A stretch of DNA of 50,902 nucleotides, from IMG/VR virus record IMGVR_UViG_3300020185_000067, positions 1 to 50,902 of that record. One strand, given 5' to 3'. Within the stretch, counting starts at the first letter, position 1. Each line of letters starts with the position of its first letter. A program made the translations under genes and the position numbers. Below are positions 2 to 36,349 of this stretch, piece by piece. The notes beneath the pieces were generated by a model, which worked only from the letters and a program-made list of their open reading frames with translations, had not been told where the DNA came from and did not search any database. Source of the DNA: a virus.

Positions 2-310
2 GACAAGACTGCTATTTTAGATAACGATATGTACTTTACACTACTTGAGAGTAGGGGTATTAAGTACATTAAGCTAAGGAGATCAAAAGACTTTGGATCT
101 CTATCTGGTAGAGAGTTTGAGATAGGCGAAGAACATATATGGAGCGCAGGTGATTCTTTCTGGAAGCTTGCTAACAAGCATATGAGCGATCCATCATTAT
201 GGTGGGTATTGGCGATTATTAACAAGAAGCCAACGGATAATCATTGTGCAATCGGGGATGTTATCTACATTCCAAAAGAAGCATATTTAATAGCCGAGGC
301 AATGAGGTAA
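2..310 (+). CDS. gp53-like baseplate wedge protein with LysM-type domain (5' end cut by window edge)
   Basis: The frame is open to the left edge, so the gene probably begins outside the window; the internal ATG at 29 would give 93 aa. The C-terminal half reads like the LysM-type domain of T4-like gp53 baseplate wedge proteins: a WSAGDSFWKLA segment, then DPSLWWVLAIIN, then GDVIYIP, the usual order 'GD.fwkLA...Dp.lWWvia..N.kP...l..GD.i.IP'. Proteins of this type sit in the baseplate wedge of contractile-tailed phages. The next gene starts one base after the stop, so the two are probably co-transcribed late genes. Function is inferred from motif pattern only. Confidence 0.65.
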   Translation, partial: DKTAILDNDMYFTLLESRGIKYIKLRRSKDFGSLSGREFEIGEEHIWSAGDSFWKLANKHMSDPSLWWVLAIINKKPTDNHCAIGDVIYIPKEAYLIAEAMR

Positions 311-5129: not shown

Positions 5130-5154
5130 ATTCTCCTCTGAACGGAGGATGAAT
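5130..5154 (+). promoter_or_regulatory. stem-loop covering the Shine-Dalgarno and start of the polA-like gene
   Basis: ATTCTCCTC pairs with GAGGATGAAT (one bulged T), giving about 9 bp around a 6-nt loop. The 3' arm contains the GGAGG ribosome binding site and reaches the ATG at 5153, so folding would hide both. Translational control is inferred. Confidence 0.4.
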
Positions 5155-6340
5155 GATATTCCAGCTAATGGATAGCAAAATTGAATGTGCAGGAACATAC
5201 ATGAATGGGAAGTTTTTCCATGATAGAATCCCAAAAGGTATCAGCAAGACTTGGTCTTGGTCTAAACTTCTGTTTGGAAAAGATATCGATTATGCTCAGC
5301 TATGGGCCCTAGGATCTTCACTAGAGGATTCTTGCCCTAGTCACCTTGTGGAGAGGTGGGCAAAGGCTAACGGTCTGCTTAAGGCCCATTTTAAAGCCTT
5401 TAATACTTCCAAGATAGACCTGAACGATGTTTGTTTTTACGATGTTGTTCCTCAAAACCATTTGAGGCGTTATTTTGATTGTAAGAACGAAATAACCAAA
5501 TGGGTATTTGAAAACATTGAACGACCTAAGAATTATTACTTTCTCAAGGAGACATTCGATAATATTAGAATGTTGTCGTTGAAAAGGGTTAAAATTAATA
5601 CAATCGCCTTACATTCAGAGATAAGCTCCGAACCTAAGGCAAAATATTTATATGATAAGTTTCATGGAAGAGATGCTTTTGTTGATTACGACATTTTTGG
5701 AACAATAACGGGCAGATTAACCACGAAGAAAGATACATTTCCGATATTGAATCTAAAAAGAGAGCTAAAGAAACATGTCTATCCAACAAATGATTCTTTT
5801 TTAGAACTCGATTTCAATGCGGCGGAAATAAGAACCCTGTTTTCATTACAGGATAAAGAACAACCAGATGGAGATATACATGAGTGGAATATTGCGAACG
5901 TTTTTAAAGAGCAACTTAGCAGAGAACAAGCAAAACAAAAACTATTTGCTTGGATTTATAATCCAGAGTCAGAAGCATTACAATCTGATATCTACGACAG
6001 GGAAATCCTCATTGAGAAACATTACATAGACGGATTGGTTCATACGCCATTCAAAAGAGAGATTCCTTGCCCAAGAGCAAAAGCTCTCAATTACCTACTC
6101 CAATCAGCATCTTCTGATAACACAATGGATAGGTTCAATAAAATAAGTAAGTATCTCATTGGGAAGAAATCCCATGTTAGCTTTGTAATCCATGATAGCG
6201 TTATCATTGACCTCCACGAGGAGGATAGTGGTTTAATCCCGTATTTGGTTCAAATATTCGGAGACACTAAACTAGGAAAGTTCAAAGTAAATGTTTCACT
6301 AGGAAAAAGCCTAGGAAGCATGAAGAAATTTAAATGGTAG
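5153..6340 (+). CDS. short family A DNA polymerase (palm/fingers, no proofreading domain)
   Basis: All main family A motifs can be placed. TGRLTTKKDTFPILNL matches the pre-motif-A 'TGRLSS..PNLQNIP' segment. DFNAAEIR is motif A with the catalytic Asp. DIHEWNIANVF matches 'DIHTETASWMF'. REQAKQKLFAWIYN is the O-helix (R, K, F, Y conserved). NYLLQSASSDN matches the Q-helix, and VIHDSVI is motif C, where the usual HDE is HDS. At 395 aa there is no recognisable 3'-5' exonuclease domain. The start follows GGAGG by 4 nt. It could fill gaps or be a second polymerase beside PolIII alpha encoded at 32.5-36.3 kb. The first 130 residues are unassigned. Confidence 0.82.
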   Translation: MIFQLMDSKIECAGTYMNGKFFHDRIPKGISKTWSWSKLLFGKDIDYAQLWALGSSLEDSCPSHLVERWAKANGLLKAHFKAFNTSKIDLNDVCFYDVVPQNHLRRYFDCKNEITKWVFENIERPKNYYFLKETFDNIRMLSLKRVKINTIALHSEISSEPKAKYLYDKFHGRDAFVDYDIFGTITGRLTTKKDTFPILNLKRELKKHVYPTNDSFLELDFNAAEIRTLFSLQDKEQPDGDIHEWNIANVFKEQLSREQAKQKLFAWIYNPESEALQSDIYDREILIEKHYIDGLVHTPFKREIPCPRAKALNYLLQSASSDNTMDRFNKISKYLIGKKSHVSFVIHDSVIIDLHEEDSGLIPYLVQIFGDTKLGKFKVNVSLGKSLGSMKKFKW

Positions 6341-6349
6341 GAGAATAAA

Positions 6350-6733
6350 ATGTTAAATTTATTATTTTTAGTTGGTATCTCACAAGCAGCAGATGTTTAT
6401 AAGATAAGCAGGAAGGCTACTTTTCAATGGTATGAGCCAAATGGAGTCTGGAGACCTAGAAAAGGCGAGTCCTTTCCAAACACATTAATGCCTACCATCA
6501 TAGTTTATGATGACTACATCACAACAGATAAACTGACCTTGAAGTATTCAAGCATCACCGATGATGGAGACGTGAAGTGCTATGTAATCCGTGAAGATTA
6601 TAATCTGTGCCTAGAAAGGTCAACAGAGCGACTTGTTATGCAAAAAACTCACAAAAACGGTCAGATTTGGCTAACTGAGTTTAGAATAGCACTGTACAAT
6701 GGCTATCCTGCAACTCCCGGGAGTTTTAAATGA
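6350..6733 (+). CDS. small predicted secreted protein
   Basis: 127 aa. Residues 1-14 form a short hydrophobic signal-peptide-like segment with an Ala-Ala region (GISQAADVY) that could be cleaved. The remainder is soluble and aromatic-rich and has two Cys (CYVIRED and NLCLERS) that could form a disulfide in the periplasm. It follows the polymerase gene by 9 nt and overlaps the next gene by 4 nt, so it belongs to the same transcription unit. No family recognised. Confidence 0.6.
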   Translation: MLNLLFLVGISQAADVYKISRKATFQWYEPNGVWRPRKGESFPNTLMPTIIVYDDYITTDKLTLKYSSITDDGDVKCYVIREDYNLCLERSTERLVMQKTHKNGQIWLTEFRIALYNGYPATPGSFK

Positions 6734-7551
6734 TTGTAGTTGGACTTGGAAAAGCAGGAATTAATGTTTCTAAGATATTTGAGCGACATGATCAATATAA
6801 TATTTTACTTTTAGATGAAAACAACGGTATAGAGTCTAGAAGCACAGTTGAGGAGTATGATGCTCATCCGGTATCTATTGATCCCAATCTCGTCAAGGAT
6901 GAGCAAGAGGGGATTCTGTTCCTATGCGGCTCTGGTAAGATAGCTGGAGCCTCGTTAAGGGTTCTAGAGGCACTGAGCTCCATTGAAATGACTGTATTCT
7001 ATATTATACCAGACTTAGAGTTCGCATCACGAGAAGAGATATTAAGAAATAATGCACATTATAACATTTTACAGCAATATGCTAGATCTGGTAAGATAAA
7101 GAACATTATCTTATCTTCTAATAAAGAAATGATCTCTCAAGTTGGAACAGGTGTTTTATCGAAGTACTACGAAAAAGTAAATTTTCATATTTATTCAATT
7201 GTTCAAAATGTGATGTTCTGTATGCATACTTCTCCTGAGTTTGGAGCATTGCAAAAACCTAAGGAATATTCGAGGATTTCAACGCTGGGATATGGAAAAG
7301 TTGATGATAATGAAGAAAGTTTTCTCTTTCCACTTGACAACATTACCGAGACGTGTTATCTTTTCAATATAAGCGAAGATGATTTGGATAATGATGATTC
7401 ATTGCTCACGAAGATTCAAGCTAAAGTTAGAAACAATAGATCTGATGATAGAGATGCTTCATATGCAATCTGGAAATCTTCCGGAGATCATAGTGATCAT
7501 TATTCGATTCATTACACACATTATATACAACAAGAGGATTTGGGTGAATGA
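6730..7551 (+). CDS. divergent FtsZ/tubulin-like GTPase superfamily protein
   Basis: 273 aa. Order and spacing of segments follow FtsZ. VVGLGKAGINVSKIF resembles the N-terminal nucleotide-binding loop; FLCGSGKIAGAS occupies the tubulin signature position (GGGTGTGAA in FtsZ). IIPDLEFASREEI resembles 'PF.fEG..R', and KIKNIILSSNKEM resembles 'SLIvIpNDKL'. Finally HTSPEFGALQKPKEYSRISTLGYGKVDD resembles the 'INvDFADV+tvM...mGiG' region, quoted here only as its outline. The signature loop is degenerate and the Asp of the catalytic T7 loop is not obvious, so filament formation or GTPase activity is uncertain. Overlaps its neighbours by 4 nt on both sides. An unrelated Rossmann-type protein is the main alternative. 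Confidence 0.45.
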   Translation: MIVVGLGKAGINVSKIFERHDQYNILLLDENNGIESRSTVEEYDAHPVSIDPNLVKDEQEGILFLCGSGKIAGASLRVLEALSSIEMTVFYIIPDLEFASREEILRNNAHYNILQQYARSGKIKNIILSSNKEMISQVGTGVLSKYYEKVNFHIYSIVQNVMFCMHTSPEFGALQKPKEYSRISTLGYGKVDDNEESFLFPLDNITETCYLFNISEDDLDNDDSLLTKIQAKVRNNRSDDRDASYAIWKSSGDHSDHYSIHYTHYIQQEDLGE

Positions 7552-8027
7552 GTAATCCAAGAATAAGAAGCGAAGAAGCAAGCCTAATTTCACAGGCAAG
7601 AAAGAAGTTTATGGAAAATGGCCTAGAGTTTAAGGTAATAACAAAACCAGACGATTTTGATAATTTCTCTGTTTATGTTTTTAATTTAGAACACGACCTA
7701 ATTGATAAATACTACGGCTTAACGGTCTTACAGGCTCTTTCAAAAGCAATCATAGGAGAAGGCATAGATAGGGCCGTAGATGAGAATTCAGAAGAAGAAC
7801 TTGAACTTGTGGATCACCCCAATCATTATGGCGGAGTCGATGCTGAGCATGAAGTAATATCAGTTATTGAAGCTTGGGACCTTGGGTTCTCTCTTGGAAA
7901 TGTTGTTAAATACATCTCCAGGTCAGGTAAGAAGGTTGGTGTAGATAATATAGTAGACCTAGAGAAGGCCAAGTGGTATTTGGGAAGACACATAGCGAGA
8001 TTGAAATTGGAGCAGGAAAATGATTAG
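7548..8027 (+). CDS. DUF3310-containing protein
   Basis: 159 aa. The C-terminal half contains VDHPNHYGG, then VISVIEAWDLGFSLGNVVKYI, then DNIVDLEKAKWYLGRHI (given in parts), the hallmark of the phage DUF3310 family. That family is often annotated as nucleotide kinase or SaV-like, but its biochemical role is not established. The N-terminal half is unassigned. It overlaps the upstream gene by 4 nt (ATGA) and the downstream methyltransferase by 8 nt, indicating translational coupling. Confidence 0.75.
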   Translation: MSNPRIRSEEASLISQARKKFMENGLEFKVITKPDDFDNFSVYVFNLEHDLIDKYYGLTVLQALSKAIIGEGIDRAVDENSEEELELVDHPNHYGGVDAEHEVISVIEAWDLGFSLGNVVKYISRSGKKVGVDNIVDLEKAKWYLGRHIARLKLEQEND

Positions 8028-10238: not shown

Positions 10239-11012
10239 ATGAAATTGAACTTAGAAGCAATGCGCGCAAAATTAGAAGCGTCGAAAAGTGGTAAAAGAAA
10301 CGGAGGAGGTAACTCAACTATGTGGAAACCAAAACCGGGCGTCCAACAACTTCGTATCGTTCCTACTGCAGACGGTGATCCGTTCCGCGAATTCCAATTC
10401 CATTATGGAGTAGGTAAGAATCCGGGCATTTACTGTAACAAGCGCAACGACAACACACCTTGTCCAATCTGCGATTTCGCAACACAATTATGGCGTGACG
10501 GCGTTAAGAATGATGATAACACCTTGAAAACAGAAGCAAAGAAGCTCTTTGCAAAGAAGCGTTATTACTCACCAGTACTTGTCCGTGGTGCTGAGTCAGA
10601 AGGCGTTAAGATTTGGGCATATGGAAAACAAGCATATGAAGCACTGCTCAGTTATGTTCTTGATCCTGATTATGGAGATATTACAGACGTTGAAGAAGGA
10701 ACTGATCTTACTTTGACCTATACTGCATCAACTGGTAAAGGAAGCTTCCCTAAGACTCAATTGCAACCTCGACGACGACCATCTGTCCTTTGTGATGATG
10801 CTGTCGCTGATTGTGAAGAGCTTTTAGCCTCTGTTCCTAAAATTGATGATTTGTTTGACCGCAAAACAACAGAACAGCTTCAAATCATCTTGGATGGCTA
10901 CTTATCTTCAGATGAGTCAGCTGAAGAGTCTTCAAGTGAGACTTCTAAGTACAAAAAGACTGATTCTTCTGACGTTGATAAAGCGTACTCAGATTTTATG
11001 AGCGCAGAGTAA
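10239..11012 (+). CDS. 32: gp32-like single-stranded DNA-binding protein
   Basis: 257 aa. The core carries VQQLRIVPTADGDPFREFQF and a zinc-ribbon-like cluster (IYCNKRNDNTPCPICDF), followed by KKRYYSPVLVRG, as in T4-type gp32 SSBs. The C terminus is a Ser/Glu/Asp-rich acidic tail with alternating lysines, ending DFMSAE, the usual partner-docking tail. It coats ssDNA and recruits helicase and polymerase. Two promoters and a good terminator bracket the gene, so it forms a strong single-gene unit directly before uvsX. Codon choice here is richer in CGT/CGC than in neighbours, as expected for a highly expressed gene. Confidence 0.85.
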   Translation: MKLNLEAMRAKLEASKSGKRNGGGNSTMWKPKPGVQQLRIVPTADGDPFREFQFHYGVGKNPGIYCNKRNDNTPCPICDFATQLWRDGVKNDDNTLKTEAKKLFAKKRYYSPVLVRGAESEGVKIWAYGKQAYEALLSYVLDPDYGDITDVEEGTDLTLTYTASTGKGSFPKTQLQPRRRPSVLCDDAVADCEELLASVPKIDDLFDRKTTEQLQIILDGYLSSDESAEESSSETSKYKKTDSSDVDKAYSDFMSAE

Positions 11013-11082: not shown

Positions 11083-11178
11083 ATGATTTTATTACTTATA
11101 ACACTATTCGCTTGTGGCGATAAAGAAGTACAAGATGATACAGCAACTGAAGAAGTAGCTGAAGAATCAAAAGCATAA
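11083..11178 (+). CDS. tiny lipoprotein, 31 aa
   Basis: MILLLITLFACGDKEVQ begins a short hydrophobic leader with a lipobox (LFAC, Cys11) followed by a very acidic tail ending EESKA. It is preceded by AAGGAAAG and its TAA overlaps the ATG of the recombinase gene (TAATG), which supports real translation. Probably an outer- or inner-membrane lipopeptide. Similar leader plus CGDK tails occur in deltaproteobacterial lipoproteins; role unknown. Confidence 0.55.
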   Translation: MILLLITLFACGDKEVQDDTATEEVAEESKA

Positions 11179-12284
11179 TGAGCAAGCCGGGCAATATCAG
11201 CGTCTCTAGTCTAAGAGATTATATCAACAAGACAGCAGGTATTGAAGTTGCCCATGATTTGCGAGAAGACAACCCAACGATGGTTAAGGAGTGGGTTCCG
11301 ACAGGATCAAGATGGCTTGATTCTATACTCTGTAAGGGTAAGATGGGGGGTATCCCTGTTGGTAAGATAACCGAACTTGCTGGCTTAAGTGGCTCTGGTA
11401 AGTCTTATATGGCTTGTACCATTGCCGCCCAAGCTCAGAAGATGGGAAAGCATGTTATCTATTTTGACTCCGAGTCAGCGATGGATCCTTTCTTTCTAAG
11501 TGAGCTTGGAATAGACATAGACAACCTATGGAACTATGTCCAAGCTTCATCTTGCGAGATGGTTCTCAAAATGGTCGAGAGCATGATGGAGGATTATCCT
11601 AAAACTAAGTTCTTCTTCATTTGGGACTCAATTGCGGCAACATCAACAAGTTCTGATACATCGAAGGATTTCAACCCTCAAAGCTCAATGGCTGTGAAGG
11701 CTAGAGTACTCTCTAAAGCTCTTCCTAAGCTTGTATTGCCCTTGGCTAACCAACAATGTACATTTTTGATGGTTAATCAACTGAAGGTGAATATATCAAA
11801 GAATCTTGCCTATGTGGCCACCACACCACTTGTGGCCCCGGGAGGAAAGTCAATTGAATACTTCTCTTCGTTGAGAATTTGGCTTGTTAAGAGAAAAGCT
11901 AAAGCAGCGTATGTTACCGACAGTTCAGGATTAAGAATTGGATCAGAAGTGAAGGTTCAGATTGAGAAGTCTAGATTCGGCTCTGAAGGTAGAACCTGTG
12001 GATTCAAGATCCTTTGGGGGGACAATGTGGGCATACAAGACGAAGAGTCCATTTTCGAAGCTCTACGGCTCTCCAAGAGCAACAATATTAAGATTGGTAA
12101 GTGGGTAGAAGTTATATCTCTTTCTGGCGAACACTTTAAGCTTAGACGGTCTGAATGGGAAACCAAAATGTTAGAGGACAAAGAGTTTAGAAAAGCTGTC
12201 CATGATATCTTGGATGAAGAGATGATCTGCAAATTTGTTAAAGAAGGTAAGAACACAGACATTGATATAGAAGAAGACAAGTAA
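11178..12284 (+). CDS. uvsX: UvsX/RecA-like recombinase
   Basis: 368 aa. Walker A GLSGSGKS lies at residues 69-76, after VPTGSRWLDSIL. YFDSESAMD, the FFFIWDSIAA Walker B strand and the MVNQLKVN segment follow in RecA order, with a C-terminal extension after FGSEGRTCGFKI. Such proteins load on SSB-coated ssDNA and perform strand exchange for repair and recombination-dependent replication. No intein interrupts the P-loop, unlike in some environmental UvsX genes. It is coupled to the small lipoprotein gene by TAATG and closed by a terminator. Confidence 0.92.
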   Translation: MSKPGNISVSSLRDYINKTAGIEVAHDLREDNPTMVKEWVPTGSRWLDSILCKGKMGGIPVGKITELAGLSGSGKSYMACTIAAQAQKMGKHVIYFDSESAMDPFFLSELGIDIDNLWNYVQASSCEMVLKMVESMMEDYPKTKFFFIWDSIAATSTSSDTSKDFNPQSSMAVKARVLSKALPKLVLPLANQQCTFLMVNQLKVNISKNLAYVATTPLVAPGGKSIEYFSSLRIWLVKRKAKAAYVTDSSGLRIGSEVKVQIEKSRFGSEGRTCGFKILWGDNVGIQDEESIFEALRLSKSNNIKIGKWVEVISLSGEHFKLRRSEWETKMLEDKEFRKAVHDILDEEMICKFVKEGKNTDIDIEEDK

Positions 12285-12896: not shown

Positions 12897-13520
12897 ATGA
12901 AAAAGGATAAGTTTAAATTTTTAAAGTTTTTAAATGAATATAGGTCAATTGAAAGCGAGCTTCGATACGTCCAAGAAATCTTAGGCGACGCTCACTTGGA
13001 GTTTGAAATACTATACAGAGTATGGTGTGCTGAAAACGATGTCGACTTGAAAGAGTTGAGTGAAAAAAATCAGAAGAAGGCCGACCTGATATTCACAGAG
13101 AGGCACTCGAATAAGGTGAAGCAAGGCCTAGCGCTCATAGCTTTTAAAGAAGAAAAGCATGCCGAAACAAAGAGTCTAAAAGATGTCTACAAAGCAATTG
13201 CTAAGAAGCTTCATCCTGATAATCTCAAAATGGATGATCCAAGACGAGTGGAATATGAAGAGGACTTTAAAAGAGCCAGTGCAGCGAACAATGAGGGAAG
13301 GTGGGGTGAGCTTTTTGATATCGTTGATAGACACGGAGTATATCTTAATGAGCACAAAGAGGCGATTGAGTGTCTAAAGTTTGATATCAAAAGACTTAAA
13401 ATAGAGTTGGAGAAAGAGAAAATCACCTATTCATGGCTATATCACGAAGCCGAGTCCGACCAACAAAGAGAAAATGTTATAAAACAGTTTTTAAGACACC
13501 TATTCGGATGGAACGGATGA
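12897..13520 (+). CDS. J-domain (DnaJ-like) protein
   Basis: 207 aa. YKAIAKKLHPDNLKMDD contains the invariant HPD tripeptide in a J-domain helix II/III setting, followed by EEDFKRASAANNEGRW, so the J domain spans about residues 95-145. N- and C-terminal parts are helical and charged, probably coiled coil. J proteins stimulate Hsp70 (DnaK) ATPase; a phage version could direct host DnaK to replication or virion assembly. No G/F or zinc region of full DnaJ is present. The stop overlaps the next ATG (ATGA). Confidence 0.65.
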   Translation: MKKDKFKFLKFLNEYRSIESELRYVQEILGDAHLEFEILYRVWCAENDVDLKELSEKNQKKADLIFTERHSNKVKQGLALIAFKEEKHAETKSLKDVYKAIAKKLHPDNLKMDDPRRVEYEEDFKRASAANNEGRWGELFDIVDRHGVYLNEHKEAIECLKFDIKRLKIELEKEKITYSWLYHEAESDQQRENVIKQFLRHLFGWNG

Positions 13521-13789
13521 ATATTATAAAAGGACAAAAACTAACACTAAACAATGGAATGACGCTGATAATGGATAAATTTGCATTTAACGACACCCTA
13601 GGCCCATTAGACATAGAGTTTTACCCGATTGAGACCGAAGAATCAGAAATATCTGAAGAAGGTGTAACATTTAATATAGAGATCGAAATATTAACTATTT
13701 TCGACAAATACTGTATAATAGCGGTTGGAACTTCGGTCGGGTCGATTTACAATACAGAGTTGCAAGAACACTTTACGGAGATAAAATGA
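13517..13789 (+). CDS. hypothetical protein, 90 aa
   Basis: The ATG at 13517 overlaps the previous TGA, which favours it over an in-frame ATG further upstream that would bury about 85 nt in the J-domain gene. The product starts MNIIKGQKLTLNNGMTLIM and has alternating hydrophobic strands, consistent with a small all-beta domain. It overlaps the exonuclease gene by 4 nt. No family recognised. Confidence 0.6.
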   Translation: MNIIKGQKLTLNNGMTLIMDKFAFNDTLGPLDIEFYPIETEESEISEEGVTFNIEIEILTIFDKYCIIAVGTSVGSIYNTELQEHFTEIK

Positions 13790-14736
13790 AAAATGTAGTT
13801 ATAATAGACGCGCTCAACATGTTTTTACGGTCTTATGTGGTTTCTCCACATATGGATAAGAAAGGAATACCTGTAGGAGGCACGATAGGCTTCATCAAGA
13901 GCTTGCAGAAGGTCATACGTGACTTTAGTGCTGATGAGGTGATAGTCGCTTGGGATGGTCTCGATGGGTCCCGTAGGAAGCGCTCCTTGAACCCTGAGTA
14001 CAAGGCTGGAAGAAAGGCTGTTAGATTTAATCGAAGATCAATTGAGCTAAGTGATGACCAAGAGCAGATTAACAAGGGGTACCAACAATTAAGATTAATA
14101 GAGTATCTCAATAGCATACCTGTAATGCAACTTATAGCAGATTATACCGAGGCGGACGATATTATTGCTCATATTGTACAATCGAGCAGGTATGGTGGCT
14201 ATAAAAAGACAATTGTATCTTCCGATAAGGACTTCTTTCAACTGTGCAACTCCGAAACTCAGATATATAGGCCAACACAACGGAAGATCATGACCTTAGA
14301 ATCTGTTATTAAAGAGTTTAGTATTCACCCAAAAAACTTTGCCTTAGCTCGTGCAATGGCCGGAGACAAGTCAGATAATCTTCCTGGAGTCCGAGGAGTA
14401 GGGCTTAAGACTATTGCTAAGAAGTTCCCATACTTGATACGAGAAAACGTCTACAATGCTGACGATATCATTAGAGACTGTGCTATGGTCGGAAAGAAGC
14501 TGAAGATGCACCACACTATTCAGGCTAGTACCCAGCTTATTAAAGATAACTATCAGATCATGCAACTTTACTACCCAAACATCAAAACGTCGAATAGGGT
14601 TGATATAGATAAAGCACTATATGAATTCGAACCAGAGTTTGATAAACTTACATTTGATAAGATGCTATCTGATGATGATGCTATGCACTTGAACTTCTTA
14701 GATATGCGTTACGCATTCAGTAAAATGATAAAATAA
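13786..14736 (+). CDS. 5'-3' exonuclease / RNase H-type flap nuclease
   Basis: 316 aa. The PIN-like fold of phage 5' nucleases is clear: IIDALNMFLRSY, VAWDG near residue 50, EADDIIAHIV with acidic metal ligands, VSSDKDFFQL, and the helix-hairpin-helix DKSDNLPGVRGVGLKTI. This matches T4 RNase H and the PolI 5' nuclease domain, which remove RNA primers and flaps. It complements the short family A polymerase at 5.2 kb, which lacks such a domain. It lies last in the 12.4-14.7 kb operon. Confidence 0.88.
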   Translation: MKNVVIIDALNMFLRSYVVSPHMDKKGIPVGGTIGFIKSLQKVIRDFSADEVIVAWDGLDGSRRKRSLNPEYKAGRKAVRFNRRSIELSDDQEQINKGYQQLRLIEYLNSIPVMQLIADYTEADDIIAHIVQSSRYGGYKKTIVSSDKDFFQLCNSETQIYRPTQRKIMTLESVIKEFSIHPKNFALARAMAGDKSDNLPGVRGVGLKTIAKKFPYLIRENVYNADDIIRDCAMVGKKLKMHHTIQASTQLIKDNYQIMQLYYPNIKTSNRVDIDKALYEFEPEFDKLTFDKMLSDDDAMHLNFLDMRYAFSKMIK

Positions 14737-15607: not shown

Positions 15608-18019
15608 ATGAAAGAACTTACAAAGACCGAATCCTTTTCTCGCTTTGGGAAAAGCTTTCAAGAGAATATATGCCAACTTATGTTGGAAGATCGTCCATTT
15701 TTCGATCAAATAACAGAAGTGTTAGACATCAACTTCTTCGAGAAGAAATATCTTCAGATCTTCGCTAAAACATTGATAAACTATAGAGAAAAGTACAACA
15801 CTCACCCGAATCCAGAAGTAATGATGACCCTACTACGAACAGAGTTAGGGAATCATGATAAAGCAACAGCACAGCAGGTAAGAGAGTTTTATGCCCGTAT
15901 TCACACATCAGACGGCGTAGAACAAACTCTATTTATAAAAGACAAGTCAATCGACTTTTGCCGAAAGCAATCATTGAAAACAGCCATGTTGAAGTCTGCG
16001 AAGTTGCTTAATTCTTCCTCTTTTGATGAAATTGAGAAGGTTATTAAAGATGCTTTGGTTCTCGGTACGGATAATGACTTTGGTCATGATTTCCACAAGG
16101 ACACATTGTTGCGATTTGAAGAGGCAGCTAGAAATCCAATCACAACAGGTTGGAGAAGAATGGACGAGATCATCAAAGGTGGCTTAGGAAGCTCAGAACT
16201 CGGTGTAGTTATCGCTCCGACTGGGTGCCATGCTATTGGTACTAAGATTATGTTATCAACTGGCGCAATGAAGAATGTTGAAGACGTAGTAGTTGGCGAC
16301 AAACTGATGGGACCTATCGGTTTTCGGACAGTTCTTCGATTATGTCGAGGAAATGAGATGATGTATGAAATCCAACCAACAAAGGGAAAATCCTTTGTTG
16401 TAAATGGTGAGCATATCCTATCTTTAGTACGAACTAATGATGGTACATCAAAATCCGGAACAGTTATCAACCTGACCGTAAACGAGTATAATCAGAAGAG
16501 CAATACATTCAAGCATATTCACAAACTGTACAGAAGTAAAGTGCAGGAGTTTGAAGGTAGTGCCTCAGTGAAGCATCCATATTTCGTGGGAGCCATGCTA
16601 GGTGACGGATCGACTTGTAATTATAACATGAGATTCACATCGGCAGATAGCGAGTTACTAAATGAGGTAACTCGAATCGTTGAGAATGATTTCAAAATGA
16701 GAGTTACTCGATATTCAAAACAGGACTCAGTTGCGGTTGATTTAGCATTGTATACTCAGAAAAGAGGTCAAAGAAATGAAGTTGGAGCTTTCTTCGAGGA
16801 CTTAGGTCTCCGGGGTTCAAAATCGGGAGACAAATTCATACCACAATCATACAAAACAGCTAGCGTTACAGATAGACTTGAGGTTCTTGCAGGATTGTTG
16901 GACACCGACGGAAGCCTGTCTAAAGGTTGCTATGACTATATCTCGAAGTCCCAGACTTTATCAGAGGATGTAGCCTTTATCGCTCGGTCTCTAGGTCTTG
17001 CAGCTTATGTTACTGAATGTGAAAAATCTTGTGGTGACTTTGTTGGAACTTATTATAGAGTTTCCATTAGTGGAGATTGCTGTATTATTCCTTCGAGATT
17101 AGAACGAAAGACGGCTTCGCCTAGAAAGCAAGTTAAGAGTGTGTTGAGAACAGGCTTCAAAGTACAACAACTTGTGGAAGACGACTTTTATGGCTTTACT
17201 TTGGATGGTGACCATTTATATCTAATGGAAGACTTCACAGTCACTCATAATAGTGGTAAGTCAATGGTTTTAGTGCATCTAGCCACACAGGCCCTGTTAC
17301 AAGGCAAGACAGTAGTATATTATACTCTAGAATTGAAAGATACGGTAGTTGGGCAACGATTTGATTGTTGTATTTCGGAAGTGGCTTTGCACGAGCATCG
17401 TCAGAGCAAAGAAGAAATCTTAAGAAAAATTGAAGATATTGATGGAACCCTCATAATTAAAGAGTACCCAACGAAGTCTGCATCTGTCTCAACGATAAAA
17501 AATCACATTGAGAAATTAAGAAAGAGAGGCATTGAGCCGGATATTGTATTAGTTGATTATGCGGATCTTTTGAGACCGCCAAGGGTAACAGGTGAAAAAA
17601 GACATGAATTGGAAGAAACTTACGAAAGCCTTCGAGGACTTGCTCAAACCTATGAAATCCCCGTGTGGACTGCCTCTCAAACCAATCGAGGCGGTCTTAA
17701 CGCTGAAGTCATCACGATGGAAGCGATCTCGGAATCCTTCAGCAAATGCTTCGTAGCGGACTTCATCTTCTCATTATCGAGAACAGTCCAAGATAAGCAG
17801 TCAAATAAGGGACGAATGTTCATTGCAAAGAACAGGAATGGTCCGGACGGCTTAGTATTCGATGCTTTTGTTGACTGGTCTGTCGTTAAGGTATCAATTC
17901 TTGATAGAAACGAGGGAGCTGAGGGTATGCAGAGCACAGGCGATGCTTTAACTACATTGAAAGCAAAATATGCAAAAGAACGCGAAAATAAAAAGTTATT
18001 ATCTACGATAAAGTCGTAG
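15608..18019 (+). CDS. 41: replicative DNA helicase (DnaB/gp41-like) interrupted by an intein
   Basis: 803 aa precursor, about 461 aa after splicing. The N-extein has the DnaB-type helical domain and GGLGSSELGVVIAPTG; the C-extein resumes with SGKSMVLVHLATQ, together rebuilding the Walker A APTG-SGKS. The C-extein also has VYYTLE, PDIVLVDYADLLRP (Walker B) and TASQTNRGG. Hexameric 5'-3' helicase that unwinds the fork, working with SSB and polymerase. The intein (residues 207-548) sits exactly inside the P-loop, so the protein is inactive until splicing. Starts after AGGAG at normal spacing. Confidence 0.9.
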   Translation: MKELTKTESFSRFGKSFQENICQLMLEDRPFFDQITEVLDINFFEKKYLQIFAKTLINYREKYNTHPNPEVMMTLLRTELGNHDKATAQQVREFYARIHTSDGVEQTLFIKDKSIDFCRKQSLKTAMLKSAKLLNSSSFDEIEKVIKDALVLGTDNDFGHDFHKDTLLRFEEAARNPITTGWRRMDEIIKGGLGSSELGVVIAPTGCHAIGTKIMLSTGAMKNVEDVVVGDKLMGPIGFRTVLRLCRGNEMMYEIQPTKGKSFVVNGEHILSLVRTNDGTSKSGTVINLTVNEYNQKSNTFKHIHKLYRSKVQEFEGSASVKHPYFVGAMLGDGSTCNYNMRFTSADSELLNEVTRIVENDFKMRVTRYSKQDSVAVDLALYTQKRGQRNEVGAFFEDLGLRGSKSGDKFIPQSYKTASVTDRLEVLAGLLDTDGSLSKGCYDYISKSQTLSEDVAFIARSLGLAAYVTECEKSCGDFVGTYYRVSISGDCCIIPSRLERKTASPRKQVKSVLRTGFKVQQLVEDDFYGFTLDGDHLYLMEDFTVTHNSGKSMVLVHLATQALLQGKTVVYYTLELKDTVVGQRFDCCISEVALHEHRQSKEEILRKIEDIDGTLIIKEYPTKSASVSTIKNHIEKLRKRGIEPDIVLVDYADLLRPPRVTGEKRHELEETYESLRGLAQTYEIPVWTASQTNRGGLNAEVITMEAISESFSKCFVADFIFSLSRTVQDKQSNKGRMFIAKNRNGPDGLVFDAFVDWSVVKVSILDRNEGAEGMQSTGDALTTLKAKYAKERENKKLLSTIKS
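16226..17251 (+). mobile_element. in-frame intein with LAGLIDADG homing endonuclease, inserted in the helicase P-loop
   Basis: 342 residues. It begins with Cys (PTG/CHAIGTKIML), has block A (NVEDVVVGDKL) and block B (VVNGEHILSL), and ends HLYLMEDFTVTHN/S, with the His-Asn pair and Ser as first C-extein residue. The centre has two LAGLIDADG motifs, VGAMLGDGST and LAGLLDTDGSL, so a homing endonuclease is present and both acidic residues are kept. Splicing and homing both look intact. Confidence 0.92.
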
Positions 18020-29628: not shown

Positions 29629-29701
29629 TTGGGTGTAACTCAGTGGTAGAGTGTCTGAGCTGATAATCAGGATGTCGTGGGTTCGATTCCCACCGCCCTC
29701 T
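29629..29701 (+). tRNA. tRNA-Ile (anticodon GAT), defective acceptor end
   Basis: Good D arm (ACTCAGTGGTAGAGT), anticodon stem CTGAG/TCAGG with loop CTGATAA (anticodon GAT), T arm GTGGG-TTCGATT-CCCAC. Only five acceptor pairs form (GGGTG/CGCCC); the first two positions are T against T/C. No CCA is encoded. Functional status uncertain. Confidence 0.75.
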
Positions 29702-29766
29702 CTTTTTAATTTGTAGAAAATGAATAAAAGAATTCTATAGCAATATTTACTAACAAGAGGTGACCA

Positions 29767-31395
29767 ATGATTAATCGAATATTCTTCTTATACTATTTAG
29801 CGGCCTGTACAGAATATGATATCAAAGAAACAACGGCTGCTGGAGATTTGAGTGATGATGGAATTCCAGATATCGTTGTAAATCCAGCTGTAATCAATTT
29901 TCCAGATTTAAATGCCGCTGATGGACTTCAAGCACAAGAAATCGTTATCGTTTCCAATATCGGTGAAGCAGATCTTCATATTGAAGAGATATGGTTAGAT
30001 GATGAGACTGGTCCTTTTTCCTATCAAGCTATCTCCTCTCCTTTAATCGCTCCTAATCAGCAAGCACAGTTTGCAATCACATTTGAGCCCCAAACTGCTG
30101 AAGTTACTCGTGGTTACGCTTATATCGAATCTGATGATCCTGACACTCCAACTGCTCAAATTGAACTTAATGGAACTGGTATTGCTCCGATTATCAACAT
30201 CGATCCAAATGAGTATGATTTCGGTTCTTTATATGTAGGCTGTGATTCTTCTCAACCACTGACCATCTCTAATATTGGTACTGCTGATCTAATCGTCGAT
30301 AATTTCAACTTCTCAACAGCATCCACAGACCTTTCCTTTGATGCTTTGGAGGCCGTCAATGGCCCATTACCCTGGACTATCCAACCAAACGGTGAAATTG
30401 AGGTCTTTGTAGATTATGCTCCAATGGATGAACTTCCAGATGCTGCATTCCTTACCGTTTCTTCCAATGACCCATACCAACCAGAAGCATTGGTAACCCA
30501 AGATGCACTGGGCGAAATCTTTGGAGAAAACTCAGATCTCTTTGAACAACCGATTCAAGGTGCTTCCGATATTATCTTTGCAGTTGACCGTTCTTGCTCA
30601 ATGGATGAGAACGTAGCCAATATGCTTACTAACTTTGGAACCTTCACTAATATTCTTGCTGGAATGGATGCTGACTACCATGTTGCGGCAATCGTTGGAG
30701 ATCCTGGTTGTGTGAATCCAGGTGGAGAACTCTTTATTGATAATTCTCACTCTGCTTCTCAGGCTGAAACGATCATTAATCAAATGATTGACATCAATAA
30801 TCAAAATATTGGTTATGGCTCAAACGAAGAGCGTGCATTTATGCAATTGGAACAATTACTCGCTAATTCAGTGAATATGAATGGTGTTCCAACAACAACT
30901 GGTTGTAATGCTGGTCTAATCCGTGAAAATGCGAAACTAGCTTTGGTTGGTGTATCTGATGAGCCGGAACAATCTGTAAACAACTACTCTTACTATGTAT
31001 CCTTGTTTCAATCTTTGAAGTCCAATCCAAATGATGTTGTTATCCACGCGATTGGTGGTGACTATCCTTCTGGTTGTGCTGGGAACCAACCTTATACTGG
31101 AATGTACGAAGCATCGGTTGCGACTGGTGGTCTATTCCTCTCTATCTGTGCGACAGACTGGGGTACTCATCTTGAAGCATTGGCTGAAGGTTCTGCACAG
31201 GATCTTACATCTTTCGAGCTAACTGAATGGCCTATTCCTGCAACTATTACTGTAAAGTTGAACAACATCGGAACAACTCTCGGATGGACTTATAATCCAA
31301 CTGACAACTCGATTGACTTCGATCCAGACTATATCCCTGAAGGTGGAGATGCGGTCCAAGTTGATTATGCAATCTATGGAGATTGTAACCAATGA
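29767..31395 (+). CDS. lipoprotein with two ASH (choice-of-anchor D) domains and a vWA domain
   Basis: 542 aa. Signal peptide with lipobox LAAC (Cys14). A short Asp-rich motif (DLSDDGIPDIVV) follows, then two ASH-type beta-sandwich repeats at about 38-142 and 143-250 (VSNIGEADLHI; TISNIGTADLIV). The vWA domain starts near residue 265 with the MIDAS DRSCSMDEN. The last about 80 residues are a beta domain. Such lipoproteins are typical of host cell-surface adhesion systems, not of virions. It may coat the infected cell (superinfection exclusion or aggregation) or be a captured host gene. Overlaps the next lipoprotein gene by 4 nt. Confidence 0.7.
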   Translation: MINRIFFLYYLAACTEYDIKETTAAGDLSDDGIPDIVVNPAVINFPDLNAADGLQAQEIVIVSNIGEADLHIEEIWLDDETGPFSYQAISSPLIAPNQQAQFAITFEPQTAEVTRGYAYIESDDPDTPTAQIELNGTGIAPIINIDPNEYDFGSLYVGCDSSQPLTISNIGTADLIVDNFNFSTASTDLSFDALEAVNGPLPWTIQPNGEIEVFVDYAPMDELPDAAFLTVSSNDPYQPEALVTQDALGEIFGENSDLFEQPIQGASDIIFAVDRSCSMDENVANMLTNFGTFTNILAGMDADYHVAAIVGDPGCVNPGGELFIDNSHSASQAETIINQMIDINNQNIGYGSNEERAFMQLEQLLANSVNMNGVPTTTGCNAGLIRENAKLALVGVSDEPEQSVNNYSYYVSLFQSLKSNPNDVVIHAIGGDYPSGCAGNQPYTGMYEASVATGGLFLSICATDWGTHLEALAEGSAQDLTSFELTEWPIPATITVKLNNIGTTLGWTYNPTDNSIDFDPDYIPEGGDAVQVDYAIYGDCNQ

Positions 31396-32517: not shown

Positions 32518-34128
32518 ATGAAAAACGAAGCAATTATTGTTAACGGTAAAGAGCTTAGAAGTTCTGATTTTGTGGGACTACATGCCCACAGTGCGTTTAG
32601 TATGTTTGATGGTTTTGGATTGCCCCAAGATCATATGGATTTCGCTTATTCGAATGGTTCGAAAGCCCTTGCTTTAACTGATCATGGGTCAATGAATGGT
32701 CTGTCTCACCAACTTTTAAAGGCAAAGAAGATGAAGATGGAAGGAAAAGATTTCAAGCCAATCTTTGGAGTTGAAGCATATTACATTGAATCTGTAGAAG
32801 AGTGGAGTAAGCTCAGAGCGGAAATTGCTTTGGATAAAAAGAGAGCAAGAGAAGTCAAAAGTGGTTTATCCGCTGTTGTTATGGAGGACGGCCAACGAGA
32901 TGATAAGAGAGCATTATCTCGTAAGAGACATATCATTCTTCTAGCGCAAAACCAGAAGGGACTAGAGAATATCTATGAGATGGTTTCTAAGTCATACACT
33001 GGGGATTACTTCTATCGTAAGCCTCGTATCGATTTCGAATTGCTGAAGAAGCACTCAGATGGCGTTATCGTCACGACAGCATGTCTTGGTGGTATAGCTT
33101 CGGAAGCAGTGTGGAAACACCAAGATGAAGGCGAAGACGCTGTATATGATAGTATGTTGGCTGATCTAACGAAGTTTCGAGACCTACTGGGAGATAGATT
33201 CTACGCAGAGCTACAATGGAATAATGTACCAGAACAGCATATGTTGAATACTGTCCTAATTAGAGTAGCGAAGACACTTGGTGTTGAGCTGATATCAACT
33301 TGTGACTCACACTATCCAAACCCTGATGCTTGGAAAGGTAGAGAGCTATACAAGAGACTGGGTTGGCTCGGAAAGATGCCGGAGTGGATGAGTGATGAAA
33401 TTCCTGAAAGCGTTGAGGAGATCGGTTATGAACTATATCCAAAGAATGCTCATGAGATGTGGGAATCATATCGAAAGTATTCTAATATGCTCGGTGTTGC
33501 TTATGATGATGATATTGTTATGGACTCAATCACAAGAACGAGAGAGATTGCATTTGGACAAATTGAAGACTTTCTCCCTGATACTTCTGTGCAGCTTCCT
33601 TCTTTTATCGTACCAGATGATACTGATGCTGATACGTTTTTATCAGAAACTGCAAAGACTGCGTTAGATACTTACATTTCTAGTATGAAAGAGTCGAAAA
33701 AGAGAGAATATAGTAACAGATTGGACAAAGAACTCCTAATCATTGCATCTCAGAAGTTTTCGGAGTATTTTCTAGTAACAAAAGCTATTACTGACTTCTC
33801 TTGGAAATATACTTTCGTTGGTCCCGGTAGAGGCTCTGCGGCCGGGAGTTTGTTGGCGTTCTTACTAAAGATTACCCACATCGATCCAATCATGTGGAAC
33901 CTTCCTTTTGAGCGTTTTTTGACCAAAAGCAAGCTAGAGGGTTTTGAAACGAAAACAGGCGGATACAAAGAGCGAGGTGACTATATCAAGCTTACAAGCG
34001 ATAGTGGAAAAGAAATCACGTTAAGCCCAGAGCTATTCATCAAGGTGAAGAGGGGAGCTTTTGAGAGAGAGGTGATGGTTAAAAACCTTATCGAGGGGGA
34101 CGAAATCGTCTCTTTATTCAAAATTTAA
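32518..34128 (+). CDS. dnaE: DNA polymerase III alpha, N-terminal half (PHP and start of palm) with Hint-like C-terminal tail
   Basis: 536 aa. PHP domain from about residue 20: LHAHSAFSMFDG, LTDHGSMNG, PIFGVEAYYIE, TACLGG, STCDSHY. The palm starts with FVGPGRGSAAGSLLAFLL and PFERFLTKS near residues 435-470, as in bacterial C-family polymerases. There the protein leaves the polymerase pattern, and residues of about 485-536 (DYIKLTSDSGKEITLSPELF and VKNLIEGDEIVS) resemble the block B end of an intein N-half. The catalytic PDIDLDF motif is encoded in the next gene. The usual block A with N-terminal Cys is not seen. Confidence 0.85.
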   Translation: MKNEAIIVNGKELRSSDFVGLHAHSAFSMFDGFGLPQDHMDFAYSNGSKALALTDHGSMNGLSHQLLKAKKMKMEGKDFKPIFGVEAYYIESVEEWSKLRAEIALDKKRAREVKSGLSAVVMEDGQRDDKRALSRKRHIILLAQNQKGLENIYEMVSKSYTGDYFYRKPRIDFELLKKHSDGVIVTTACLGGIASEAVWKHQDEGEDAVYDSMLADLTKFRDLLGDRFYAELQWNNVPEQHMLNTVLIRVAKTLGVELISTCDSHYPNPDAWKGRELYKRLGWLGKMPEWMSDEIPESVEEIGYELYPKNAHEMWESYRKYSNMLGVAYDDDIVMDSITRTREIAFGQIEDFLPDTSVQLPSFIVPDDTDADTFLSETAKTALDTYISSMKESKKREYSNRLDKELLIIASQKFSEYFLVTKAITDFSWKYTFVGPGRGSAAGSLLAFLLKITHIDPIMWNLPFERFLTKSKLEGFETKTGGYKERGDYIKLTSDSGKEITLSPELFIKVKRGAFEREVMVKNLIEGDEIVSLFKI

Positions 34129-34198: not shown

Positions 34199-36349
34199 AT
34201 GAACTTTAAGATCAATAAAATAGAGAAGCTAACTGACGTAGAATTAGAAATCGCAGTTGTAGCTAATGGTAGAAATGAAACTACTGAGGGCGTAACAGTC
34301 CACAACAGAAAAGAAACTTCGATGCCGGATATTGATCTTGACTTCGGAGATAACTCTCTCATTAAGGATAAAATGGTAGATGAGTGGGGATCTGATTCTG
34401 TAGCTTTCATTACGAATTACAACACTCTTCAACTTGCTTCTCTTATTAAGGATATCTCGAAGAGAGAAGGCGTCAACTTTATCGAGGTGAACCAAGTAAC
34501 TAAGATTATGGTAAAAGAAGCCACAGGTCCCGCAAAGAAAGCGAGAGGAATCAAAGCTGGTATGTATTCTCCAACGTTCCAAGATTTATGTGAGTATTCC
34601 ACGTCAGTTCAGGACTTCTTTGCAAAATACCCACACATCAAGTCACAAGTGCTTGGACTCGTCGGGCAGCCCCGCTCAATCGGTCGTCATGCCGCCGGAG
34701 CCATCATCGGAGACTATCTGCCTAGCAGAATGCCTTTAATCACTTCTAAGGGCATTAGACAGACTCCTTGGACAGAAGGTCAAAACGTTCGTCACTTGGA
34801 ACCTCTTGGATTCATTAAGTTTGATATCCTTGGCCTTGAGACATTGAAGACGTTCGAGGATGCTATCTATCGTATTCTTAGAAACAAAGGAGAAGAGGCA
34901 ACCTTTGAGAACGCTAAGAAGTGGTACTTCGCGAACTTGCACCCATCTGTGCTTGATATGAATGACCAAAAGGTGTACAAGGAAGTATTTCATGATGGTA
35001 ACTATGCCGGAACGTTTCAATTTATGAATGATGGTATGCAACGTTTGGGAACTTCATCTAAAGTATCTTCTTTGGAGGAAATCGCAACCGTTTCAGCCAC
35101 TTATCGTCCGGGACCATTGTCTGCGGGCGTGGATAAGTTGTACTTGAAAGCAAAGTTTAGTGCTGAGCCAATCAAATACGATCACCCAATCATTGAGAGA
35201 GTTTTGAGTAAGACCTTCGGGCTAATAATCTTCCAAGAGGATATCATGAATCTAGCTCATGCTCTGGGAGATGATATCTCAATGTCTGATGCGAATGTTC
35301 TTCGTAAGCTACTCACCAAACAGGGCCTAACAGGCAAAGTAAAAGAGAAGAAGGAAATCCTTCGAAAGAAGTTTATTCTTGGTTGCGAGAAAAATGGTCT
35401 GGGTTTCGTTAAAGGCAAGGCTCTCTGGGATAAGATGGAGTACTTCTCGGGATACGGATTTTCCAAAAATCATGCAATTCCATATTCTATCATCACTTTT
35501 CAGTGTGCTTGGTTACAGACATACTATAAGGATGAATGGGTATCAGCATTTTTGGACCATGAGCCCGCAAAACGTAAGGAATCAGCGATTAGTATTGCTC
35601 AATCATTAGGTTATAAGATTAAGGGACTGGACATCAATACTTCAGGGATGCAGTGGGAAGTGAGAGATGGAGTGCTAATCTCTCCACTCACAACAATCAA
35701 GGGATTAGGTCAGGCGGCCATTGAGGAAATCATCGAGAAGCGTCCATTTGCCTCTGTAGAGGAACTCTTGTTCGACAAAGGTGTGGTCGCACGGAAAGTT
35801 AATAAGAAGTCCCTAGATGCCCTTTGTAGAGCCGGAGCAATGGAATCATTGTTAGATGATAGGTTCTTTGGTACCAAACACTTCTGGTCAGCAGTTGTAG
35901 TTGATAAGCCAACGAACAAGAAGAAGCTTGGCTTGAACATTAAGAAGTACAGAAAAGAGGGAGACTTCTCCAAGTCTGAGCTCATTACAAACTATAAGAC
36001 TTTGACTGGTATATATCCGATCAATATGGTAGTACCTGCAAAGGCATATGCTTTTTTCAAGAGTCAGGGAATACTTCCAATCTCAGAGTATGATCCTGAT
36101 TTGGGGAAATGTTGGTGTGTCCCCACAGAAGTTGTAGAGAAGAAGACCAAAAGGGGTAAAGACTACTTCACTGTGAAAGTTATTGATTCAAACATGGAAG
36201 AAAAGAGGTTCAATTGTTGGGGAGTTAAATCAAAAGTGGATGTTGTACATTTGAATCGACTCTATGTTGTAGAGTGGCCAAAGTATGATGAAGCTTGGGG
36301 CTTCTCAACATCTGGTCCGATATCAAAGAATTGGAAGCTTTTAGGATAA
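34199..36349 (+). CDS. dnaE: DNA polymerase III alpha, C-terminal half (catalytic palm, fingers) preceded by a C-Hint segment
   Basis: 716 aa. Residues 1-36 (FKINKIEKLTDVELEIAV and TTEGVTVHN) match the C-half of a split intein, ending in His-Asn at 34301-34306. The polymerase resumes as RKETSMPDIDLDF, which carries the catalytic Asp pair; FIKFDILGLETL supplies the third. SIGRHAAGAII, YRPGPLSAG, IIFQEDIM, GYGFSKNHAIPYSIIT and the tandem HhH region (TTIKGLGQAAIEEI) follow. No clamp-binding tail is obvious. The first residue after HN is Arg, not Cys, Ser or Thr, so canonical trans-splicing looks unlikely. Confidence 0.87.
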   Translation: MNFKINKIEKLTDVELEIAVVANGRNETTEGVTVHNRKETSMPDIDLDFGDNSLIKDKMVDEWGSDSVAFITNYNTLQLASLIKDISKREGVNFIEVNQVTKIMVKEATGPAKKARGIKAGMYSPTFQDLCEYSTSVQDFFAKYPHIKSQVLGLVGQPRSIGRHAAGAIIGDYLPSRMPLITSKGIRQTPWTEGQNVRHLEPLGFIKFDILGLETLKTFEDAIYRILRNKGEEATFENAKKWYFANLHPSVLDMNDQKVYKEVFHDGNYAGTFQFMNDGMQRLGTSSKVSSLEEIATVSATYRPGPLSAGVDKLYLKAKFSAEPIKYDHPIIERVLSKTFGLIIFQEDIMNLAHALGDDISMSDANVLRKLLTKQGLTGKVKEKKEILRKKFILGCEKNGLGFVKGKALWDKMEYFSGYGFSKNHAIPYSIITFQCAWLQTYYKDEWVSAFLDHEPAKRKESAISIAQSLGYKIKGLDINTSGMQWEVRDGVLISPLTTIKGLGQAAIEEIIEKRPFASVEELLFDKGVVARKVNKKSLDALCRAGAMESLLDDRFFGTKHFWSAVVVDKPTNKKKLGLNIKKYRKEGDFSKSELITNYKTLTGIYPINMVVPAKAYAFFKSQGILPISEYDPDLGKCWCVPTEVVEKKTKRGKDYFTVKVIDSNMEEKRFNCWGVKSKVDVVHLNRLYVVEWPKYDEAWGFSTSGPISKNWKLLG

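What the first reader, a model, noticed from the sequence alone, without database searches (positions are those of the whole stretch)
6730..7551. Phage-encoded divergent FtsZ/tubulin-like protein
Segment order and spacing follow FtsZ through the nucleotide loops, the NDKL-like step and the synergy-loop region, with heavy divergence in the signature loop. Phage tubulins such as PhuZ position replicating DNA in nucleus-forming jumbo phages; this one is not obviously related to PhuZ and sits beside polymerase and structural genes.
Basis: inference. Interest (0 to 1): 0.7.

Follow-up and report, generated by a model that had tools for sequence, protein, structure and literature searches.

The report
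Tubulin-fold protein beside phage DNA polymerase
An uncultured lineage of T4-like phages carries a small, stripped-down tubulin-like protein in its DNA-replication operon, right after a DNA polymerase gene, which may mean that such phages use a cytoskeleton-type protein to organise copying of their DNA.

Summary
The 273-aa ORF at 6730-7551 is a real gene whose predicted structure (pLDDT 92.6) matches CetZ, FtsZ, TubZ and tubulin over its full length (Z 21-24); sequence search alone finds nothing significant. It is not PhuZ-like in sequence. Its family is large and unannotated: at least 587 IMG/VR stretches, no tblastn match in 50,697 phage records. Ten of 10 large carrier contigs have a T4 Gp23 capsid gene; they look Far-T4-like.

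The new point is context: a fixed place in a replication operon (PolA-like polymerase, tubulin fold, gp32, RecA, exonuclease). In a polymerase-anchored scan 78 of 80 loci had it directly downstream; 2 ended too soon. Cultured relatives (immuto, Mel-JY01, RM378) lack it.

The family keeps the GxGxxG loop and two asparagines at guanine-contact positions, but lacks GGGTG[ST]G, a conserved T7 catalytic acid and, in both models, helices H8/H9. I favour a GTP-binding, slowly or non-hydrolysing assembly protein that organises phage replication. Fold and operon are shown by computation; nucleotide binding, polymerisation and function are inferred.

The parts
6730..7551 (+). tubulin/FtsZ-superfamily protein, 273 aa
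6742..6759 (+). GLGKAG, T1-like glycine loop (residues 5-10); G5, G7, G10 in 116/116
6925..6948 (+). CGSGKIAG, position of the tubulin signature loop T4 (residues 66-73); GGGTG[ST]G kept in 0/116
7072..7089 (+). residues 115-120 with Q115, R119, S120, family-specific invariants (116/116), role unknown
7120..7122 (+). N131, NDKL-position asparagine, 116/116
7168..7182 (+). Y147-x3-N151 on helix H7, guanine-stacking and guanine-contact positions (Y or F 111/116; N 114/116)
7222..7287 (+). T7 / H8 region (residues 165-186): no NxDxxD motif, no helix H8 in the model
7528..7530 (+). Q267, invariant (116/116); the protein ends 6 residues later, no C-terminal tail
5153..6340 (+). PolA-like DNA polymerase, 395 aa, conserved upstream neighbour
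6350..6733 (+). 127-aa ORF between the polymerase and the tubulin-fold gene, overlaps the latter by 4 bases
7548..8027 (+). DUF3310 / nucleotide kinase-like protein, overlaps the tubulin-fold gene by 4 bases
10239..11012 (+). gp32-like single-strand DNA-binding protein, conserved downstream gene
11178..12284 (+). RecA/UvsX-like recombinase
13786..14736 (+). 5'-3' exonuclease
15608..18019 (+). DnaB-like replicative helicase (with intein)
29..310 (+). ORF in the same cluster as a protein matching a baseplate wedge family; upstream structural side

Best explanation
The protein is a compact, catalytically simplified member of the tubulin/FtsZ superfamily, inherited as part of the replication operon of an uncultured Far-T4-like phage lineage. 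Shown by computation: the fold, the family, the operon position, the purifying selection, the conserved nucleotide-loop positions and the absence of a conserved T7 catalytic motif. Inferred: it binds GTP or GDP through the GLGKAG loop, N131 and Y147/N151; it is made together with the polymerase and gp32; it assembles, perhaps into stable rather than dynamic filaments, because the T7 acid that triggers hydrolysis in the neighbouring subunit is not kept; and the assembly gathers, anchors or positions the replicating phage DNA. My probability is about 0.97 for the superfamily, 0.85 for a role in replication or genome handling, and 0.45 for assembly-based scaffolding as the mechanism.
For: Fold: AlphaFold2 pLDDT 92.6, pTM 0.91. 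Foldseek top TubZ E 1.6e-10, FtsZ 1fsz 9.7e-10. VIA CetZ2 Z 23.8, rmsd 2.7 over 256; FtsZ 2r6r Z 23.0 over 264; TubZ 4ei7 Z 22.8 over 270. Distant member L010 agrees. Guanine-site positions invariant or nearly so. Operon: 102 of 116 distinct family proteins have a PolA-like ORF upstream, and 0 have 1.5 kb upstream without one; 35 of the 102 overlap it and 11 are within 30 bases; gp32 downstream in 107 of 116. Polymerase-anchored scan: 78 of 80 loci have the gene directly downstream, 2 of 80 were cut short. Identity matrices correlate: tubulin-polymerase r 0.88, tubulin-gp32 r 0.85, over 73 loci. Single copy in 10 of 10 large contigs. Precedent: a catalytic PhuZ mutant (D190A) forms stable, non-dynamic filaments (PMC4244570, passages seen).
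Against: No evidence of polymerisation or GTP binding. T4 signature 0 of 116 and T7 acids not conserved; helices H8 and H9 absent in both models, so a canonical longitudinal interface may not form. Operon membership does not prove a physical role in replication. Profiles give no significant tubulin hit: PF00091 matches 2 of 32 members, best E 0.011, while the NAD-binding Rossmann family TrkA_N matches 14 of 32, best 2.9e-5. Cultured Far-T4-like phages have no gene that the family profile finds, so the function is dispensable for that kind of replication in general.
Confidence: 0.5

Rival explanations
1. It is a non-polymerising accessory factor of the DNA polymerase or replisome: the tubulin fold was retained as a nucleotide-sensing or protein-binding module, for example binding the short PolA-like polymerase or gp32.
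For: The gene directly follows or overlaps the polymerase; catalytic and interface elements H8, H9, T3/H3 and T7 are reduced; family-specific invariants Q115, R119, S120 and Q267 are not part of known nucleotide loops (loop positions recalled); no T4 sliding-clamp match in 11 of 11 records, although that C-terminal clamp model may simply miss a diverged clamp.
Against: The base-contact positions are strictly kept, which a pure scaffold would not need; no direct evidence of interaction.
Confidence: 0.3
2. It targets host division: the phage protein co-assembles with or caps host FtsZ and, lacking T7 catalytic acids, poisons the Z-ring to keep the cell undivided during infection.
For: FtsZ-like fold with hydrolysis residues not conserved. 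Phage peptides that act on host FtsZ exist (the abstract of PMC9372555, seen, names lambda Kil).
Against: Fixed position in the replication operon rather than among host-takeover genes; only about 9-13% identity to FtsZ at the structural level, low for co-polymerisation; hosts unknown, so host FtsZ could not be compared.
Confidence: 0.12
3. It is an NAD- or nucleotide-binding Rossmann enzyme that only resembles tubulin's N-terminal domain.
For: GxGxxG at the N-terminus; TrkA_N matches in 14 of 32 members, best 2.9e-5.
Against: Full-length structural match including the central helix and C-terminal domain; all 50 rows shown for each of two models are tubulin-superfamily chains, Z about 21-24.
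Confidence: 0.03

Closest known systems
FtsZ (bacterial and archaeal division GTPase)
   Same: Whole fold (2r6r Z 23.0 over 264 residues), loop order, N131 and Y147/N151 positions
   Different: No GGGTG[ST]G, no conserved T7 acids, no H8/H9 in the models, no C-terminal tail peptide; 265-293 aa; in a phage replication operon
CetZ (archaeal tubulin-like)
   Same: Best structural match for both models (Z 23.8 and 24.4), tied within 1-2 Z units with FtsZ and TubZ
   Different: 11-16% identity; catalytic and signature motifs missing; viral operon
TubZ (plasmid and phage partition GTPase)
   Same: Top Foldseek hit; Z 22.8
   Different: Much shorter (273 against about 380-414 residues in the solved chains); TubR/TubY partners were not looked for
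PhuZ (phage tubulin of nucleus-forming jumbo phages)
   Same: Phage-encoded tubulin-superfamily protein; the T1 region aligns weakly
   Different: No significant sequence relation (0.4 bits); carriers are contigs of 111-192 kb with Gp23 capsid; no chimallin match; PhuZ keeps the catalytic acid D190 (PMC4244570)
Far-T4-like phage replication operon (Mel-JY01, immuto; also RM378)
   Same: Polymerase - small genes - gp32 - RecA - exonuclease - helicase order in Mel-JY01 and immuto
   Different: These isolates have no tubulin-fold gene detectable by the family profile; other small genes fill the place

Membership tests
tubulin/FtsZ superfamily | two-domain fold: Rossmann-like nucleotide domain, central helix H7, C-terminal domain | tested here: met
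tubulin/FtsZ superfamily | T1 glycine loop (GxGxxG) | tested here: met
   116 of 116
tubulin/FtsZ superfamily | guanine-recognition asparagines (T6 position and H7) | tested here: met
   N131 116 of 116; N151 114 of 116; positions matched by hhalign; that these contact guanine is recalled from known structures
tubulin/FtsZ superfamily | T4 signature GGGTG[ST]G | tested here: not met
   0 of 116; replaced by forms such as CGSGKIAG
tubulin/FtsZ superfamily | T7 catalytic NxDxx[DE] | tested here: not met
   no motif at the T7 position; 17 of 116 have no acid at residues 168, 170 or 172. Three NxDxxE strings lie elsewhere in residues 141-200 (L005, L076, L127)
tubulin/FtsZ superfamily | significant match to curated sequence models | tested here: not met
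   PF00091 2 of 32 members, best E 0.011; TIGR00065 3 of 32, best E 0.12
tubulin/FtsZ superfamily | GTP-dependent polymerisation | not testable with these tools
   needs purified protein
FtsZ | C-terminal tail with conserved peptide | tested here: not met
   window protein ends 6 residues after invariant Q267
PhuZ | sequence homology to PhuZ | tested here: not met
   0.4 bits with all filters off
PhuZ | phage nucleus protein (chimallin) in the same genome | tested here: inconclusive
   no match in the window record and ten large relatives at BLAST level; the window is a fragment and completeness of the others is unknown
TubZ | TubR/TubY partners and centromere beside the gene | not tested
   neighbours between the tubulin-fold gene and gp32 are small ORFs without known function
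Far-T4-like phages (carriers) | T4 Gp23 major capsid protein related to RM378-type phages | tested here: met
   Gp23 in 10 of 10 large carrier contigs; nearest isolates immuto, Mel-JY01, RM378 for the one protein searched; no Gp23 tree was built, and the window record was not searched for Gp23

The most novel reading that the evidence does not exclude
A tubulin-fold protein that no longer hydrolyses GTP is an obligate part of the replication machinery of a widespread phage lineage: a cytoskeletal fold recruited to work with a DNA polymerase and SSB, forming a permanent replication scaffold instead of a dynamic spindle.
Probability: 0.3. Interest if true: 0.87.

Novelty: new variant of a known kind. 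Interest (0 to 1): 0.72.

Why it matters
Phage tubulins are known mainly from nucleus-forming jumbo phages (PhuZ) and partition systems (TubZ). Here is a separate family in T4-superfamily phages of ordinary size, with at least 587 IMG/VR hits and no annotation, tied by synteny to a DNA polymerase. If it organises replication, intracellular organisation by tubulin-like proteins would be much commoner in phages than thought. Its missing catalytic motifs make it a natural test of whether a tubulin fold is useful without GTP hydrolysis.

Tried and rejected
Sequence-only routes gave nothing significant: Pfam, PHROGs, PDB and phage tblastn with single proteins, PDB profile search (one Rossmann hit, E 0.93), NCBIfam, PF00091 searched directly in the window and four large relatives (none at E <= 10). 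A weak tblastn hit in a fecal record (H1, E 0.3) proved to be an oxidoreductase-like ORF (identified by reading it) and was dropped. The genome-contig scan found no relative, 0 of 7 pattern matches; only one pattern was used, so cellular or prophage copies are not excluded. Global hhalign failed; the local result is weak. I considered the T7 acid as moved rather than lost: 99 of 116 have an acid at 168, 170 or 172 and 17 have none, so a displaced acid in most members remains possible. The T4 clamp search was negative, but its control rang below cut-off in only one genome. PhuZ chains were not among the 50 rows shown; that excludes nothing.

Literature: searches (listings seen) found no description of a tubulin-like gene in T4-like or Far-T4 phages. 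'tubulin' and 'FtsZ' occur 0 times in the main texts of PMC4360716, PMC7198788 and PMC13037479 (passages seen). PMC7824862 and PMC8597652 mention phage tubulin/FtsZ proteins in other settings (passages seen). Most subscription papers, supplements and preprints were not searched.

Rows dropped before counts: 154 loci held a family member, 147 full length, 116 after removing identical proteins. Several loci are the same contig fetched twice, so conservation and operon counts are given on the 116. In one search ten (A3 scan) and six (A4 scan) loci were labelled 'elsewhere' only because the tubulin hit touches or overlaps the polymerase hit; I counted them as downstream. The A4 count covers 79 of 80 listed loci (L288 was already in the A3 set).

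Full report
WHAT IS THERE. The ORF at 6730-7551 (+) encodes 273 aa. Single-sequence searches of Pfam, PHROGs, PDB sequences and 50,697 phage records find nothing convincing. From the fetched loci I extracted 154 members, 147 full length, 116 distinct. Purifying selection is strong: median dN/dS 0.071 over 102 of 121 pairs.

FOLD. AlphaFold2 with the 32-sequence alignment gives pLDDT 92.6 and pTM 0.91. Foldseek against PDB: 538 matches at E <= 0.001, top TubZ 1.6e-10. VIA-align 2: CetZ2 4b45 Z 23.8, rmsd 2.7, 256 residues; FtsZ 2r6r Z 23.0, rmsd 3.2, 264; TubZ 4ei7 Z 22.8, rmsd 3.3, 270; tubulins about Z 21. The tool's own note puts the typical best Z of models without a clear match at 7-8. A member about 32% identical (L010) gives pLDDT 89.8 and CetZ 3zid Z 24.4 (rmsd 4.2), TubZ 22.4, FtsZ 22.3. 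In the viral library only 6 matches reach E <= 0.001, the best an uncultured Caudovirales 'FtsZ Cell division GTPase'. Superfamily membership by fold is therefore firm; sequence profiles alone would not have shown it. Pfam per member: Tubulin 2 of 32 (best 0.011), TrkA_N 14 of 32 (best 2.9e-5).

ACTIVE SITE. Across 116 proteins, G5, G7, G10, Q115, R119, S120, N131 and Q267 are invariant; G67 115, E41 115, N151 114; residue 147 is Y in 99 and F in 12. hhalign against 87 FtsZ sequences aligns residues 120-161 with E. coli FtsZ 154-196 (E 0.022, reported probability 2.1%), placing N131 on the N of NDKL and Y147/N151 on the F and N of AFGAAN. From recalled tubulin and FtsZ structures, these positions stack on and recognise guanine. 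The T4 signature GGGTG[ST]G occurs in 0 of 116; NxDxxD is absent at T7, and 17 of 116 have no acid at 168, 170 or 172. DSSP of both models shows no helix between H7 and the strand before H10, so H8 and H9 are missing, and only short helices remain between S2 and S4, where FtsZ has T3/H3 (FtsZ helix names recalled). The window protein ends 6 residues after the last conserved residue, so there is no FtsZ- or TubZ-like tail.

GENOMIC PLACE. Clustering 1,698 ORFs from 154 loci (153 fetched loci and the window) shows a near-invariant order on one strand: baseplate-side genes, a PolA-like polymerase of about 395 aa, the tubulin-fold gene, gp32-like SSB, RecA/UvsX, 5'-3' exonuclease, with a helicase after it where the locus is long enough. 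On the 116 distinct proteins, a PolA-like ORF lies upstream in 102, and none has 1.5 kb upstream without one; 35 overlap it, 11 are within 30 bases, 41 within 31-500, 15 further (max 1,617); gp32 follows in 107. Anchoring on the polymerase instead, 78 of 80 loci have the tubulin-fold gene directly downstream and 2 of 80 end too soon; when the scan was led by the polymerase of the tubulin-less isolate Mel-JY01, 75 of 79 have it and 4 (L338-L341) have polymerase and gp32 without it. The first scan is built from carriers, so it shows fixation within that clade, not in all Far-T4 phages. Identity matrices of the three proteins correlate at 0.83-0.88 over 73 loci, as expected for joint vertical descent.

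THE PHAGES. Ten of 10 large carrier contigs (111-192 kb) have Gp23 and a terminase, and one tubulin copy each. One Gp23 searched in full (L243) is closest, among cultured phages, to Flavobacterium phage immuto, Microcystis phage Mel-JY01 and Rhodothermus phage RM378, i.e. Far-T4-like. Those three have no match to the family profile; in Mel-JY01 and immuto the same operon has other small genes between polymerase and gp32. Far-T4 phages were described by Roux et al. (PMC4360716, passages), and linked to marine Bacteroidetes (PMC7198788, passages) and Flavobacteriales (PMC13037479, passages); the host of the window phage itself is not shown.

MECHANISM. Kept base-contact positions argue for a guanine nucleotide; lost catalytic motifs argue against fast hydrolysis. 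In PhuZ, mutating the catalytic D190 gives stable, non-dynamic filaments (PMC4244570, passages). Joined with the operon, my preferred reading is a slowly or non-hydrolysing assembly that organises replication. A non-polymerising replisome factor is the main rival; an FtsZ poison is less likely. None of these has been tested.

NOVELTY. The fold is known; this family, its reduced anatomy, its group of phages and its fixed place beside a polymerase appear undescribed in what I could search. I file it as a new variant of a known kind.

Noticed in passing
window 32518-34128 and 34199-36349: DNA polymerase III alpha (DnaE) is in two ORFs; the match breaks at the same profile position (438) in both. 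The first ORF has about 60-66 extra residues at its end and the second about 36-39 at its start, between polymerase parts that are continuous in G006 and G009. This looks like the two halves of a split intein; not tested further.
   Followed up: partly
window 15608-18019: DnaB-like helicase carries an intein with Hom_end_hint and LAGLIDADG domains, which may explain its terminase-like PHROG hits.
   Followed up: partly
window 42730-44319: Phage GroEL-like chaperonin; a chaperonin match is present in 8 of 11 records searched, the window among them.
   Followed up: partly
window 29767-31395: 542-aa protein with HYDIN/ASPM-type Ig-like (ASH) domains, a domain type named after cilia and spindle proteins.
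   Followed up: no
window 12897-13520: Weak match to DarT1-associated NADAR antitoxin (E 0.00018, below cut-off); 4 members in the ORF clusters.
   Followed up: no
window 29629-29702: tRNA-like gene with an unassigned two-base anticodon next to tRNA-Ala.
   Followed up: no
L419:1346-1801 and L256:7618-8007: A similar-looking 129-151 aa protein of unknown function sits just after the polymerase in immuto and Mel-JY01, in the place of the tubulin-fold gene (similarity judged by eye).
   Followed up: partly
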